From the NCBI RefSeq assembly GCF_000355695.1, contig NC_020891.1, forward strand, positions 372,001-436,000: 64,000 nucleotides of DNA, in the 5' to 3' direction. Source of the DNA: Clavibacter nebraskensis NCPPB 2581 (lineage in GTDB: Bacteria > Actinomycetota > Actinomycetes > Actinomycetales > Microbacteriaceae). Both the position numbers and the translations under genes were made by a program. The notes beneath the pieces were generated by a model, which ran no database searches, was not told where the DNA came from, and saw nothing but the letters and a program-made list of their open reading frames with translations. Positions 23,710 to 29,145 of this stretch are shown one piece after another (the stretch's first letter is position 1; each line of letters opens with the position of its first letter).

Positions 23710-24330
23710 TCAGCTCGCGTGGGCGGGCGTGCGATCGGCCGGTGCGCGTTCCGCGGCGGCGCGATCCCCGTCCTCCGCGACGCCGCAGCCGCGGACCGCG
23801 TCGGCATCCGCGTCCGCGGGCAGCGCGTCCCCGCCGGCGTTGAGCCGCGCGAGGTAGCCGGCGAAGGCGTCGAGGTCGGCGCGCGTCCACCCGCCGAGCC
23901 CGCGGATCAGGCGGCTGCCGCCCGCGGCGTCGTCCGCCTCGATCCCCGCGCGGCCCGCCGGGGTGAGCGCGAGAACGCGCACCCGGCCGTCCTGCGCGTC
24001 GGCCCCGACCTCCACGAGCCCCAGGTCCTGGAGCTGGCGGAGCTGGCGGCTGACCACGCTGCGGTCGACGCCGAGCTGGTCGGCGACGGCGCTCGCGTGG
24101 GCCGCGCCGCAGCGGCGGATCACGCGGAGCATCTTGTAGCCGATGGGCGGCAGCTCCGGGTGGATCCGCGACGCCGCCTCCCGGGTCGTCGCCCGGATGC
24201 GCGCGGCGAGCGCGGTCATCTGCTCCTCCACCGCGGCGATGCCCGCGGCGATCCCGTCGGCCGTCCCGTCGGCGACGCCGGGGGAGTCACCCGCAGCGTC
24301 GCCCACGGGGGAGCGGTCCTCGTCGGTCAT
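23710..24330 (-). CDS. MarR-family regulator of the adjacent efflux pump
   Basis: 206 residues from ATG 24330. Winged helix in the middle: AAHASAVADQLGVDRSVVSRQLRQLQDLGLV, wing VGADAQDGRVRVLAL. The start overlaps the stop of the MFS gene (ATGA), so pump and regulator are co-transcribed, pump first. The long Ala/Asp-rich tail is unusual and probably disordered. Confidence 0.88.
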   Translation of the reverse strand: MTDEDRSPVGDAAGDSPGVADGTADGIAAGIAAVEEQMTALAARIRATTREAASRIHPELPPIGYKMLRVIRRCGAAHASAVADQLGVDRSVVSRQLRQLQDLGLVEVGADAQDGRVRVLALTPAGRAGIEADDAAGGSRLIRGLGGWTRADLDAFAGYLARLNAGGDALPADADADAVRGCGVAEDGDRAAAERAPADRTPAHAS

Positions 24331-26087
24331 CGGCGGGAGTCGACCCCGGCGTCCTCGGCCTCGGGGATCCGGATGGATCCCGTCGGGTTCGCCTCGCCGA
24401 CCGGGGTGAGCGCGACGGCGCCGGCGGATGCGCCGATGAGCGCGTCCTCGGCGTCCGTGCGATGCACCTCGCGGGCGTCGACCGCGGTGGCGGCCTTGTC
24501 GCTCTTCAGCTGCACGGCGTTCTTGCTGCCGAGCTGCGCGTTGGGCAGGAAGATCACGGCCACGAGCGACACGATCGCGAGCGGCACGCTGTAGAGGAAC
24601 ACGTCGCCGATGCCCACGCCGTAGGCGCTCTCGACCACGGTGCGCACCGCCGGGGTGAGCGAGTTGACCTGCGGGATCACGCCGGAGCCGAGCGCCTGCG
24701 CGGCGACGGCCTGGTCGGCCGGGGCGAGCTTCATGATCCCCGCGGTGATCTCCGACGCGATGATCGTGCCGAGGATCGAGCCCAGCACCGAGACGCCGAC
24801 CGTGCCGCCGAGGCTGCGGAAGAACGTGACCGCGCTGGTGGCGACACCGAGGTTCTTGACCTCGATGGCGTTCTGCACCACGAGGACGAGGTTCTGCATG
24901 AGCATGCCGAGTCCCGCGCCGAGCACGAACATGTAGATCCCGACGAGCAGGAAGTCGGTGTCGTAGCGGAGCGTGGACAGCAGGCCCGTACCGGCGACGA
25001 TGAGGACGGCGCCCGAGATCATGATCGTCTTCCACTTGCCGCGACGGCTGATCAGGTTGCCGAACACGGTCGAGGAGATGAGCAGGCCCGCCATGAGCGG
25101 GATGGTGAGCAGACCCGACTGCGTCGGCGTGGCGCCGCGCGACAGCTGCATGTACTGCGCGAGGAAGACCGAGGTGCCGAACAGCGAGATGCCGACCGCG
25201 AGGCTCGCGAGCACGGAGAGCGTGAAGGTGCGGTTGCGGAACATCGTGAGCGGGATGATCGGCTCGGCGACCTTGAGCTCGGTGACGACCGCGGCGATCA
25301 GCAGCACGACGGCGCCGCCCGCCATGAGGTACGAGGTGCCCGAGGCCCACTCGAACTGCTTGCCGGCCTGCGAGACCCAGATGAGCAGGAGCGAGACGCC
25401 GCTGGCGATGAAGACCGCGCCGAGGTAGTCGACGTGCACCTTGCGCTTCGGGTGGGCGGGCAGGTGGAGGGTGACCTGCAACAGGATGATCGCGATGATC
25501 GCGATGGGCAGCGCGATGAAGAAGTTCCAGCGCCAGCCGAACGCGTCGGTCACGACGCCGCCGAGGAGCGGGCCGCCGACGGTGCCGACGGCCATGACGG
25601 CGCCGAAGAGGCCGGCGTAACGGCCGCGGTCACGCGGGCTGATGATGTCGGCCATGATGATCTGGCTCAGCGCCGCGAGCCCGCCGGCGCCGAGGCCCTG
25701 GAGCACGCGGAAGACGATGAGCGTCTCGGTGTTCTGCGAGAAGCCGGCGAGCGCGGATCCCAGCACGAAGGTGCCGAGGGCGAGCTGGATGAGCAGCTTG
25801 CGGTTGAAGAGGTCGGCGAACTTGCCCCAGAGCGGCGTGCTCACGGTGGTGGCGAGCAGCGTCGCGGTGACGACCCAGGTGTAGCCGGACTGGTCGCCCT
25901 TGAGGTCGCTGATGATGATCGGCAGCGAGGTCGAGACGACGGTGCCGGCGAGGATCGAGACGAACATGCCGAGCAGGAGGCCCGACAGGGACTCGAGGAC
26001 CTGGCGCTTCGACATGGATCCGTCGGCCGAGACGGTGCGGCGGGGGGCCTTCGCGGGTGACGCGGTGGCCGGGTGGTGCTGGGACAT
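24327..26087 (-). CDS. DHA2-family (EmrB/QacA type) drug efflux MFS transporter
   Basis: 586 residues, about 14 membrane helices. Motif A-like GKFADLFNRKLLIQ after helix 2, motif C-like [17 protein letters not shown] around helix 5, and TWVVTATLLATTVSTPLWGKF typical of the EmrB branch. Exports amphipathic compounds by proton antiport; substrate unknown. GGAGG precedes ATG 26087. Transcribed from a near-consensus promoter at 26115-26143. Confidence 0.92.
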   Translation of the reverse strand: MSQHHPATASPAKAPRRTVSADGSMSKRQVLESLSGLLLGMFVSILAGTVVSTSLPIIISDLKGDQSGYTWVVTATLLATTVSTPLWGKFADLFNRKLLIQLALGTFVLGSALAGFSQNTETLIVFRVLQGLGAGGLAALSQIIMADIISPRDRGRYAGLFGAVMAVGTVGGPLLGGVVTDAFGWRWNFFIALPIAIIAIILLQVTLHLPAHPKRKVHVDYLGAVFIASGVSLLLIWVSQAGKQFEWASGTSYLMAGGAVVLLIAAVVTELKVAEPIIPLTMFRNRTFTLSVLASLAVGISLFGTSVFLAQYMQLSRGATPTQSGLLTIPLMAGLLISSTVFGNLISRRGKWKTIMISGAVLIVAGTGLLSTLRYDTDFLLVGIYMFVLGAGLGMLMQNLVLVVQNAIEVKNLGVATSAVTFFRSLGGTVGVSVLGSILGTIIASEITAGIMKLAPADQAVAAQALGSGVIPQVNSLTPAVRTVVESAYGVGIGDVFLYSVPLAIVSLVAVIFLPNAQLGSKNAVQLKSDKAATAVDAREVHRTDAEDALIGASAGAVALTPVGEANPTGSIRIPEAEDAGVDSRR

Positions 26088-26100
26088 GTTCCTCCGGGTA

Positions 26101-26144
26101 GTTGACTACAAGCAACCATATGCCGATGGTGGACATTTGTCAAC
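26101..26144 (-). promoter_or_regulatory. Near-consensus sigma-A promoter and operator for the efflux operon
   Basis: On the minus strand TTGACA (26143-26138), exactly 17 bp, TATGGT (26120-26115). GTTGAC (26101-26106) and GTCAAC (26139-26144) form a widely spaced inverted repeat overlapping the -35 and the start region, and GTTG-N8-CAAC (26101-26116) is a second small one. The MarR gene of the operon is the obvious candidate regulator. Confidence 0.7.
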
Positions 26145-26296
26145 GATCGCAGCTACTGCGCAGCGCCTACCGCAGCGACGGCAAAGATGCAACAGGCGGC
26201 GAATTCGGGGTAGGAGCGCCACCCGTGCCGCACCTCCTCCTTCCCTCTCCAACCGAGGGATGCACACGGCGCCCTCATCGGGGATGAGGAGGAATC

Positions 26297-27489
26297 GTGT
26301 CGTCAGTTCAAGGGGACGAGCACCGATCGTCGAAGCTCTTCGAGCATGTGTCCTCCACGGACCCAGGGTGGAGGGCAGACCCGGCGAAGCTCTTGGCCGC
26401 GGCGAGGCGCTGGCATCCCATCGCGTCCTGCACCCTGCCGAGGTTCGACGTCGACGCGTTCCAGCGGCGTCACGGCTTGCCCTCGGGGGCCCGGTCGCAG
26501 CGGGCCCGTGCACACCCGAGGCGGTGCTCGGGGTGATGAATGAAGAGAGATTCCGAAAGGGACCGTCGCACTTCCCCTGGGATGCATCCGGAGACGTCCT
26601 CCGGCGCGTCGCCGACGCGATCCGATGTGGGCGCCCGGTGAAGGTGGTGCTCCCGTCTTTCGCGGGTCGGCCGCACAACCCTGCGGCGCACCGGCGAGTG
26701 GCCCCTGATCTCGGCGAGCTCTACGCGTTGCAGCTCCTGAAGAACATCTCCGACGCCGTGTCAGTCGTCTATGCACCCGGCGTGCTGTTCACCCTGGTGC
26801 TGGACGGTCGCGCCTATCGGCCCTTCTACGGTTAGAGCGACGATGAGGCGATGCCGTATGGCGACAACGTGAGGAAGCAGATCGACCTGCTCGGTGCGCG
26901 CGGGCGCATCCAGGCGGTGGACATGCACGACGTGATGCAGGCGAGAAGCGAGGAGCTTGCCTCCATCGACCTGGCGGTGAGGGAGGAGGTGACTCGGCTG
27001 TGGGCCTCGAACCGCTTCACGCATCGGCGGGATCTCGTCCGGGCCCTCCGGCAGGGGACGGAGACGACAGCCATCTCGGCGGCCTTCATCGAGCTCAACA
27101 AGAGAGGCGGCCTCGATGGGGTGGACGTCGCGGCGCTTTTGCGAGAAGCAGATGAGATCCTCGAAGAGCGGGCCGATCGGACCGCCTTCGAGTACGCCGT
27201 GCTCCTCACCAAGCTGCGCGAACTCGATGTGCTGGGGCGCGCGTTCCCTCACGCGGTGCGCGGCACGGTCCATCCGAAGCCGGGGCAGTACTCCCCTCGA
27301 ATCAAAGACGATGCCACCCGCATCAGCCCCTGGCACGGCGTCGCCATCGAACACCTGGACGGGCGCATCGTCACGGAGTACGAGGCGTTCGTCTACCAGG
27401 ACTTCGAACAGTACGAGGCCGTCTTCGTCGCCGGGGATGAGGCCCCGTTCTTCTACAGGCGACGGGGCACCCCGTCAGCGAGCGCGTGA
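26297..27489 (+). pseudogene. Isonitrile synthase (PvcA/DIT1 family), broken by a stop and probably a frameshift
   Basis: Two parts in one frame match the DIT1/PvcA family, which makes isocyanides from tyrosine or tryptophan and ribulose 5-P. Part one (ATG 26536 to TAG 26833-26835) holds VKVVLPSFAGRPHNP, PDLGELYALQLLKNI and FTLVLDGRAYRPFYG. Part two (ATG 26851 to 27489) holds DEAMPYGDNVRKQID, VRGTVHPKPGQYSPRI and ISPWHGVAIEHLDG. From ATG 26536 the whole would be 317 residues, near the family length. A stronger start, GTG 26297 behind GAGGAGGAATC, opens another frame (79 residues) whose TGA overlaps ATG 26536 (TGATG). Composition is lower in GC than neighbours, suggesting transfer. No PvcB-type oxygenase is present. 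Confidence 0.7.
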
Positions 27490-28736
27490 TCGGCAGCGGC
27501 GCGAATGCTGATGTCGGCCGTTTCCGGTCACGACCGCTCAGGGCGCTCGTGGCGGCGCAGGTGGCCGCTTCCACCGGTGCGGGCCTCTCGCTCACGATCG
27601 CGAGCGTCGCCGTGCTCGAGCTGTCGGGTTCGGAGAGAATCGCAGGTCTTGCGCAGACGGCGATCGTGGTCGGCGCCAGCGTGCTCACGATCCCGGTCTC
27701 TCGACTCGCGGCCCGAGCAGGCCGGCGGTGGTCTCTCGGGCTGGCTTACGCCCTCGCGATGCTCGGGGCGCTCGTGTGCGCCGCAGCCATCGCGGCGTCG
27801 GCGTGGGAGGCGGTGCTCTTCGGTCTGACTCTGGTGGGAGGCGGTACTGTGGCGGGCCTAGCGGCGCGCTTCGCCGCGGCCGAGACAGCCCGACGGCCCC
27901 GTGATGCGGCTCTGGCGATCGCATTGGTCCTCTGGGCGTCGACCGTCGGGTCAGTCGTCGGACCGAATCTGGTGTCGCTGACGGGAGTGGGTGCGTCGTC
28001 CGGGGCCTTCATGCTCCTCGCGGCCCTCTATGCGATTGCTGCCCTCGTCGTCATGCTCGCGGTCCCGAGCTCGCCACCCCGCCCGAGTCGCGCCCGTGCG
28101 CGATCCTCCCCGGCGACCGTGATGCGCGTCCTCCGTGGTCGACCGGCTGCGTCCGCCGGCATCGGTCTCAGCGCCATCGTGCACGTGACCATGGTCGCGC
28201 TGATGGCCATGGCGCCGGTGCACCTTCATCACGACATGGCACCCGATGCGGTCGTGGGCCTCGTCATGAGCGGCCACCTCGCGGCCATGTACGGCCTGAG
28301 TCCGCTGTTCGGTCTCGTCATCGCACGGCACGGCACGAGGGGATCGGCCATTGCCAGCATGATCATCGTGTGCTGCGCGGGGGGCATCCTCGCGCTGTCC
28401 GCCTCCGGCGACGAACTGGGCTTCGGACTCGGCTTGGCGCTCCTCGGCATCGGGTGGTCCATGGGGATGGTCGCAGGATCCGCGCCCGTGGTCGAGGCAC
28501 TCGAGCCCGACGAGCGACTCGCGACGCAGGGGACGACGGACCTCGTGATCAACGTCGGCGGAGGAGCGGCCAGCGTCGTCGCCGGGGTCATCGTCGCCGG
28601 GCAGGGTTACGCCGCCCTTGCCACCGCGTTCGCCGTCGGGGTGGGACTCGCGACGGTCGGCGCCTCATGGGTGGGCCTGCGTCGCCGGTGCAGACCTCAG
28701 CCGCACGTGGAGGCGGAGCCCCCGCGTCGGGAGTAG
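27486..28736 (+). CDS. MFS transporter, probable exporter coupled to the isonitrile locus
   Basis: 416 residues, about 12 membrane helices, motif A-like SRLAARAGRRWSLGL after helix 2. GTG 27486 overlaps the stop of the isonitrile synthase frame (GTGA), so it depends on translation of the interrupted gene upstream. Its frame is intact. Export of the isocyanide product would fit, but substrate is an inference. Confidence 0.85.
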   Translation: MIGSGANADVGRFRSRPLRALVAAQVAASTGAGLSLTIASVAVLELSGSERIAGLAQTAIVVGASVLTIPVSRLAARAGRRWSLGLAYALAMLGALVCAAAIAASAWEAVLFGLTLVGGGTVAGLAARFAAAETARRPRDAALAIALVLWASTVGSVVGPNLVSLTGVGASSGAFMLLAALYAIAALVVMLAVPSSPPRPSRARARSSPATVMRVLRGRPAASAGIGLSAIVHVTMVALMAMAPVHLHHDMAPDAVVGLVMSGHLAAMYGLSPLFGLVIARHGTRGSAIASMIIVCCAGGILALSASGDELGFGLGLALLGIGWSMGMVAGSAPVVEALEPDERLATQGTTDLVINVGGGAASVVAGVIVAGQGYAALATAFAVGVGLATVGASWVGLRRRCRPQPHVEAEPPRRE

Positions 28737-28788: not shown

Positions 28789-29145
28789 ATGATCGATTCG
28801 GTGGCGACGGTCTGGCTGCCCGTGCAGGACATGACGCGCGCGGTGGCGTTCTACCGCGACGCGCTCGGTCTCACGGTGACGAGCGAGGACGCGGACTGGA
28901 GCGAGATCGACGCGGACGGCCTGATGATCGGGCTGAACGCGCGCGAGGAGGCGGGCGGCTCGAAGGGCGGCGGGGCGGTCATCTCGTTCACGCCCGAGGG
29001 GTCCATCGAGGACGAGCTGGAGCGGATCCGCGCGCGCGGCGCCGAGATCACGGGCGAGATCAGCGACCACGAGTGGGGCCGCATCCTCCCGTTCCAGGAC
29101 AGCGAGGGCAACGACCTGCAGCTGTACACGCCGCCCGCGGGCTAG
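28789..29145 (+). CDS. VOC-family protein
   Basis: 118 residues. SVATVWLPVQDMTRAVAFYRDALGL opens the first module and the end FQDSEGNDLQLYTPP is typical; candidate metal ligands are few, so enzyme or binding protein remains open. GAGGAGGAACCCC precedes ATG 28789. Confidence 0.87.
   Translation: MIDSVATVWLPVQDMTRAVAFYRDALGLTVTSEDADWSEIDADGLMIGLNAREEAGGSKGGGAVISFTPEGSIEDELERIRARGAEITGEISDHEWGRILPFQDSEGNDLQLYTPPAG

What the first reader, a model, noticed from the sequence alone, without database searches (positions are those of the whole stretch)
26297..28736. Interrupted isonitrile synthase plus exporter: a decayed or unusually expressed isocyanide locus
The PvcA/DIT1 family makes isocyanide natural products, used as antibiotics or metal-binding agents. 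Here the coding frame is full length but split by TAG at 26833-26835, exactly where family members read straight through, with restart ATG 16 bp later. Upstream, a strongly SD-led GTG frame ends in TGATG on the synthase ATG, hinting at either a frameshift or a coupled leader peptide. The exporter is intact and no PvcB oxygenase is present. The lower GC suggests transfer.
Basis: partly seen in the sequence, partly recalled or inferred. Interest (0 to 1): 0.72.

Follow-up and report, generated by a model that had tools for sequence, protein, structure and literature searches.

The report
Broken enzyme gene beside intact exporter
A bacterial genome that fits a maize pathogen carries a foreign two-gene unit whose small-molecule-making enzyme gene is broken while the pump gene beside it is intact, and the same lopsided decay is seen in several related loci, which suggests that the pump may be worth keeping by itself.

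Summary
A DIT1/PvcA-family (PF05141) gene is broken at TAG 26833-26835 in front of an intact MFS exporter. The upstream GTG frame is not a leader peptide but the enzyme's own N-terminus, out of frame, so there are at least two lesions. The ~2.56 kb unit is absent from this site in 17 of 17 congeneric genomes: it was acquired. Genome length fits Clavibacter nebraskensis NCPPB 2581. Five intact two-gene copies (Rathayibacter, Mycetocola, three genomes of another genus) have one uninterrupted enzyme frame, so a two-subunit enzyme is rejected. "Isonitrile synthase" is a family label only: the clade keeps 19 of 53 columns invariant in 12 canonical members and scores 32 bits against PvcA's cut-off of 600. 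New here: among 13 related loci, four of four broken synthases keep an intact exporter, two loci have an intact exporter and no synthase, none has an intact synthase without an intact exporter. Best reading: a decayed mobile synthase-exporter cassette whose exporter outlives the enzyme. The product is unknown.

The parts
26149..28708 (.). Acquired stretch, absent from congeners
   Evidence: 17 of 17 same-genus genomes match the left flank to 26148 or 26154 and the right flank from a point between 28709 and 28728, with 23-72 bp of their own between. No terminal repeats or target-site duplication were recognised at the edges.
26287..26293 (+). Shine-Dalgarno-like AGGAGGA before the GTG
   Evidence: Read from the sequence.
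26297..26536 (+). GTG frame: N-terminal part of the synthase, out of frame with the rest
   Evidence: 62.5% over 48 aa to Rathayibacter, 55.6% over 63 aa to Mycetocola, 35-48% to three others.
26536..26835 (+). Middle piece of the synthase, ending in TAG 26833-26835
   Evidence: PF05141 2.7e-10; 77.8% over 99 aa to Rathayibacter.
26851..27489 (+). C-terminal piece of the synthase
   Evidence: 71.4% over 206 aa to Rathayibacter, 50% to G848.
27486..28736 (+). Intact MFS exporter gene
   Evidence: PF07690 2.2e-24; 50% over 346 aa to the Rathayibacter partner, 32% to that of G848; no stop inside.
28709..28736 (+). Last codons and stop of the exporter, in sequence shared with the empty-site flank of some congeners
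   Evidence: Flank alignments.
24327..26087 (-). Resident EmrB-type efflux gene (left neighbour, not part of the cassette)
   Evidence: TIGR00711, 247.8 bits, over the cut-off of 230.2; the tested part (25500-26087) lies in the flank matched in 17 of 17 congeners.
28789..29145 (+). Resident glyoxalase-family gene (right neighbour, not part of the cassette)
   Evidence: PF00903, 48.7 bits.

Best explanation
This is the decayed remnant of a small mobile two-gene cassette: a DIT1/PvcA-family enzyme and, overlapping or abutting its stop codon, an MFS exporter. The cassette entered an ancestor of this strain between a resident emrB-type pump gene and a glyoxalase-family gene (shown: empty site in 17 of 17 congeners). 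In intact relatives the enzyme is one protein of 385-417 aa which probably turns the amino group of an amino acid into an isocyanide or N-formyl group (inferred from the family), and the exporter moves the product out (inferred from the pairing). Here the enzyme gene has a frame change and a stop, from which I infer that it is dead as an enzyme, while the exporter is open and conserved (shown). Ribosomes could still reach the exporter at its own GTG or by hand-over through the overlapping frames (inferred).
For: The N-terminal frame and both pieces align in order to five intact homologues. Intact cassettes: Rathayibacter sp. VKM Ac-2856 (L069), Mycetocola tolaasinivorans (L070), G848, G1263, G1274. 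Both window genes are most similar to Rathayibacter, then Mycetocola, then the G848 group. Neighbours differ: a pantoate ligase gene in L069, a chaperonin gene in L070, transposase genes around G848. Empty site in 17 of 17 congeners. Relative-rate test: C piece 23 window-specific against 8 Rathayibacter-specific replacements, chi2 7.26; exporter 43 against 35, chi2 0.82.
Against: No substrate or product is known to me for any member of the clade. The relative-rate excess is in the C piece only (N-terminal part 7/7, middle 5/4), is p about 0.007 before correction for four tests, and uses Mycetocola as outgroup, which the synthase trees do not settle (0.304 and 0.714 for conflicting groupings). 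A codon count is weak for the C piece (nonsynonymous/synonymous 37/26 against 27/30) and leans the same way for the exporter (114/59 against 86/61). Window-Rathayibacter dN/dS of the C piece is 0.22, so most divergence predates the decay. One assembly only: a sequencing error cannot be excluded for either lesion; other strains of the species were not available.
Confidence: 0.85

Rival explanations
1. The exporter is kept by selection: the enzyme is costly and repeatedly lost, while the exporter persists because it protects against, or moves, the product made by neighbours that still have the enzyme.
For: 13 loci of the clade: 5 intact synthase with intact exporter; 4 broken synthase with intact exporter (window, G1362, G1382, G1479); 2 intact exporter and no synthase match (G1235, exporter 97% identical to that of G848; G1284, 52%); 2 broken exporter and no synthase match nearby (G1304, G1285:C4); 0 intact synthase without intact exporter. 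In 4 of 4 broken copies the C-terminal frame is open up to the exporter start region. Exporter dN/dS is 0.14-0.43 in 9 of 10 pairs, the tenth saturated.
Against: Events are not fully independent: G1382 and G1479 sit at the same locus as the intact Rathayibacter copy. The 6-to-0 sign test gives 0.016 only under independence. If the product is toxic, the order of loss is forced without any later benefit of the exporter. Synthase remnants look as constrained as exporters: dN/dS of C-tails 0.27-0.30 against exporters 0.36-0.42 for the same three pairs, and 0.18 against 0.23 for G1362-G848, so pairwise values do not show selective retention. Two orphan exporters are broken. Outside the clade, G1285:C1 has an open distant family member beside an MFS gene that appears in two frames. 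Exporters without synthase were sought in one genus only.
Confidence: 0.3
2. The stop and the frame change are errors of this assembly and the gene is intact in the living strain.
For: Only one assembly was seen; all other pieces of the frame are open and well conserved.
Against: Two separate lesions in one gene of a complete genome; faster replacement in the C piece; broken copies also in three other genomes.
Confidence: 0.1
3. The separate frames are functional: a two-subunit enzyme or a coupled leader peptide.
For: TGATG overlap of the first two frames and an ATG 15 bases after the TAG.
Against: Five of five intact relatives have one uninterrupted frame, which includes the supposed leader.
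Confidence: 0.03

Closest known systems
PvcA and other isonitrile synthases (PDB 3e59, 9dh4, 9dhm)
   Same: Sequence relatives over the PF05141 domain: the intact Rathayibacter homologue matches 3e59 at E 1.6e-13.
   Different: All five intact cassette enzymes keep only 19 of 53 columns invariant in 12 canonical members; three invariant lysines are R, A and Q in all five. The domain match starts at residue 99-129 against residue 49 in 3e59. No PvcB-type gene in the window's genome. NCBIfam PvcA equivalog 32 bits against a cut-off of 600.
Yeast Dit1
   Same: Same Pfam family; most likely makes formyl tyrosine (PMC7345447, passages).
   Different: Acts with the P450 Dit2 (same passages); no direct sequence comparison with Dit1 was made here.
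Fungal isocyanide synthase gene clusters with an MFS gene
   Same: About 60% of fungal clusters hold at least one MFS gene (PMC10153163, passages).
   Different: That preprint says all characterised bacterial and fungal clusters also hold tailoring enzymes; here synthase and exporter stand as a pair with unrelated neighbours.

Membership tests
PF05141 DIT1_PvcA | Score over the curated cut-off of 26.4 bits | tested here: met
   Middle piece 40.6 bits; C piece alone 15.3. Intact relatives 68.3, 73.0, 70.4 and 76.5 bits (L069, L070, L064, L066).
L-tyrosine isonitrile synthase PvcA (NCBIfam NF045653 equivalog) | Score over the cut-off of 600 bits | tested here: not met
   20.9 and 11.8 bits for the window pieces; 31.7 and 31.6 for two intact relatives.
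Isonitrile synthases | Residues invariant in canonical members | tested here: not met
   19 of 53 columns kept by all five intact relatives. Which of these are catalytic was not established.
Isonitrile synthases | Isocyanide product from an amino acid and ribulose-5-phosphate | not testable with these tools
   Needs an enzyme assay.
PvcA-PvcB pathway | TauD-type (PF02668) oxygenase partner | tested here: not met
   0 of 1 genome.
MFS transporter | PF07690 over the cut-off of 33.4 bits | tested here: met
   86.4 bits.
Two-subunit enzyme | Same split conserved in relatives | tested here: not met
   0 of 5 intact relatives split.

The most novel reading that the evidence does not exclude
A mobile enzyme-plus-pump cassette of a new DIT1/PvcA clade behaves like a producer-immunity pair: the enzyme is repeatedly destroyed, with the end of its frame left open into the exporter, and the exporter is kept by selection as a stand-alone tolerance gene against an unknown small molecule made by neighbours. 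In this plant pathogen it would be an immunity relic with a live pump. (Lowered from 0.33 to 0.30 on recheck, because of the G1285:C1 case and the constrained remnants.)
Probability: 0.3. Interest if true: 0.6.

Novelty: new variant of a known kind. Interest (0 to 1): 0.42.

Why it matters
It corrects a tempting label (isonitrile locus) and defines a small synthase-exporter cassette found in three Microbacteriaceae genera and one further actinobacterial genus. If the exporter is kept for protection, the cassette is a two-gene model of how producers turn into non-producing tolerant strains, and the exporter offers a handle on an unknown metabolite.

Tried and rejected
Leader peptide and two-subunit enzyme: rejected. 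Transfer judged from GC alone: too weak. Transposon ends or target-site duplication at the island edges: none recognised. Regulatory palindrome: a 7-bp stem beside the Shine-Dalgarno sequence is in the window but in none of six relatives, and the fold is unremarkable (z -0.68). RNA families and tRNAs in the window: none. Viral contigs: no relative. Plasmids: only distant family members at 22.9-28.8% identity. Phages: no match. Defence-system models: none for three proteins. Structure prediction of the intact Rathayibacter enzyme on a two-row alignment failed (mean pLDDT 38.3), so no fold search was run. The first genome-contig scan, with the C piece, found no relative.

Rows dropped or faulty: L018 was taken from the wrong strand and corrected. 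The row L003:1-3 in alignment A2 was a meaningless placeholder. G1238 (52-residue match), G085, L017, L018 and G1285:C1 (distant members) were left out of the cassette tally. Of 28 exporter matches, the 20 at 37% identity or less were left out. The neighbours of the canonical family members (L003-L015, L019-L021) were not examined.

Literature: Clavibacter with isocyanide gave three papers, none on such a locus by title and abstract start. PF05141 is named in two papers, both on fungi by title. A six-term search gave 40 papers of which 15 were listed; none of those 15 contains 'isonitrile' or 'isocyanide'. Isocyanide synthase with transporter, bacteria and gene cluster gave 26 papers, 25 listed. 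Within those searches I saw no description of this cassette.

Full report
What is in the window. The window lies at 372001-436000 of a single-contig genome of 3,063,596 bases. That equals the length listed for Clavibacter michiganensis subsp. nebraskensis NCPPB 2581 (PMC4059874, Table 2, passage seen), so I take the strain to be C. nebraskensis NCPPB 2581; no tool named it. Between a resident EmrB-type efflux gene (24327-26087, minus strand) and a glyoxalase-family gene (28789-29145) lie a GTG frame of 79 aa, an ATG frame of 99 aa that ends in TAG 26833-26835, an ATG frame of 212 aa, and an MFS gene of 416 aa that overlaps the previous stop by 4 bp.

The enzyme gene is broken twice. The middle and C-terminal pieces match PF05141 in order and match intact homologues at up to 78% and 71% identity. 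The GTG frame matches the N-termini of all five intact homologues compared (62.5% over 48 aa to Rathayibacter). It is therefore the first part of the same protein in another frame, and the frame changes somewhere in about 26475-26536. I neither read the gene through nor mended it.

Intact relatives. A scan of genome contigs with a 68-residue core alignment found two: Rathayibacter sp. VKM Ac-2856 and Mycetocola tolaasinivorans. Each has an uninterrupted enzyme gene (385 and 387 aa) directly followed by an MFS gene (401 and 399 aa). In 394 genomes of the class, 17 including the own matched the Pfam family; of three low-scoring ones whose ORFs I listed, G848 carries the same pair. In 151 genomes of G848's genus, 6 matched the synthase: G848, G1263 and G1274 intact, G1362 with an internal deletion, and two distant or short matches.

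It arrived by transfer. In 17 of 17 congeneric genomes the two flanks lie 23-72 bp apart, and 0 of these 17 has the family. One of them (L037) has a separate IS481-type insertion further right. No insertion-sequence ends or duplications were recognised at the island's edges. Intact cassettes have different neighbours: a pantoate ligase gene in Rathayibacter, a chaperonin gene in Mycetocola, repeated transposase blocks around G848. GC is only mildly low.

What the enzyme probably does. The clade is supported at 0.998 in the C-piece tree and 0.963 in the middle-piece tree and is distant from canonical isonitrile synthases. Of 53 columns invariant in 12 canonical members, 19 are kept by all five intact cassette enzymes; three invariant lysines are R, A and Q in all five. 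The best solved relative is PvcA 3e59 at E 1.6e-13. Dit1 of the same family is reported to make formyl tyrosine and not an isocyanide (PMC7345447, passages; contested in PMC10153163, section 23). I commit to an isocyanide or formamide of an amino acid at about 0.6, and to an isocyanide specifically at about 0.35. Export by the partner MFS is inferred from pairing: five of five intact synthases of the clade have it next door.

The lopsided decay. Beside the window, G1362 has an in-frame internal deletion (243 aa left), G1382 an in-frame deletion of about residues 49-312 with further changes in conserved motifs, and G1479 only the last ~82 residues. All four have an exporter without stops (416, 404, 406 and 406 aa for window, G1362, G1382, G1479; the starts are my choice). 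G1235 has an exporter 97% identical to that of G848 and no synthase match; G1284 likewise at 52%. G1304 (one TGA inside) and the C4 locus of G1285 (two frames) have broken exporters and no synthase match nearby. Of these 13 loci none has an intact synthase with a missing or broken exporter. Outside the clade there is a case that does not fit: G1285:C1 has an open distant family member beside an MFS gene seen in two frames. In the four broken copies the C-terminal frame is open to a stop that overlaps the exporter start by 4 bp (window, G1362, and G1382 with the start assumed) or lies four bases before a GTG (G1479).

How to read it. A simple reading is that loss of the enzyme is tolerated, loss of the exporter first is not, and translation into the exporter is preserved. 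A stronger reading is that the exporter is kept for protection. The data do not separate the two: the loci are not independent (6 to 0 gives 0.016 only if they were); pairwise dN/dS of exporters (0.14-0.43 in 9 of 10 pairs) includes time before the losses; and the synthase remnants show similar or lower values (C-tails 0.27-0.30 against 0.36-0.42 for the exporters of the same three pairs; 0.18 against 0.23 for G1362-G848).

Age of the decay. Window-specific replacements exceed Rathayibacter-specific ones in the C piece (23 against 8, chi2 7.26) but not in the N-terminal part (7/7), the middle (5/4) or the exporter (43/35). The outgroup used, Mycetocola, is supported by the exporter tree (0.922) but not settled by the synthase trees. 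A codon count is weaker, and leans the same way for the exporter. No further stop lies in the C piece. The break is probably recent on the scale of the divergence from Rathayibacter.

Verdict. Ordinary decay of an acquired gene explains the stop. What lifts the case is a synthase-exporter cassette that I did not find described and the recurrent survival of the exporter.

Noticed in passing
L037:370-1332 (minus strand), congeneric genome G016: An IS481-type transposase gene has inserted into the same emrB-glyoxalase intergenic region, close to the site of the window's island.
   Followed up: partly
L064:2700-14003 (G848): The intact cassette lies among repeated transposase blocks, direct and inverted, with arms up to 750 bp at 100%.
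   Followed up: partly
L068:7057-9516 (G1285:C1): A distant DIT1/PvcA member (25% to G848) is followed by an MFS gene that appears in two overlapping frames.
   Followed up: partly
window 26098-26109: A palindrome-like GTAGTTGACTAC lies just upstream of the resident emrB gene, near the island's left edge; seen by eye, not tested.
   Followed up: no
L017:1180-2424 and L018:1093-2370: Two divergent PF05141 genes in other genomes of the class pair together in the trees (0.994 and 0.974).
   Followed up: no
L065:3441-10811 (G1263): A nearly identical copy of the G848 cassette sits in other surroundings, with transposase- and resolvase-like frames nearby (named by eye).
   Followed up: no
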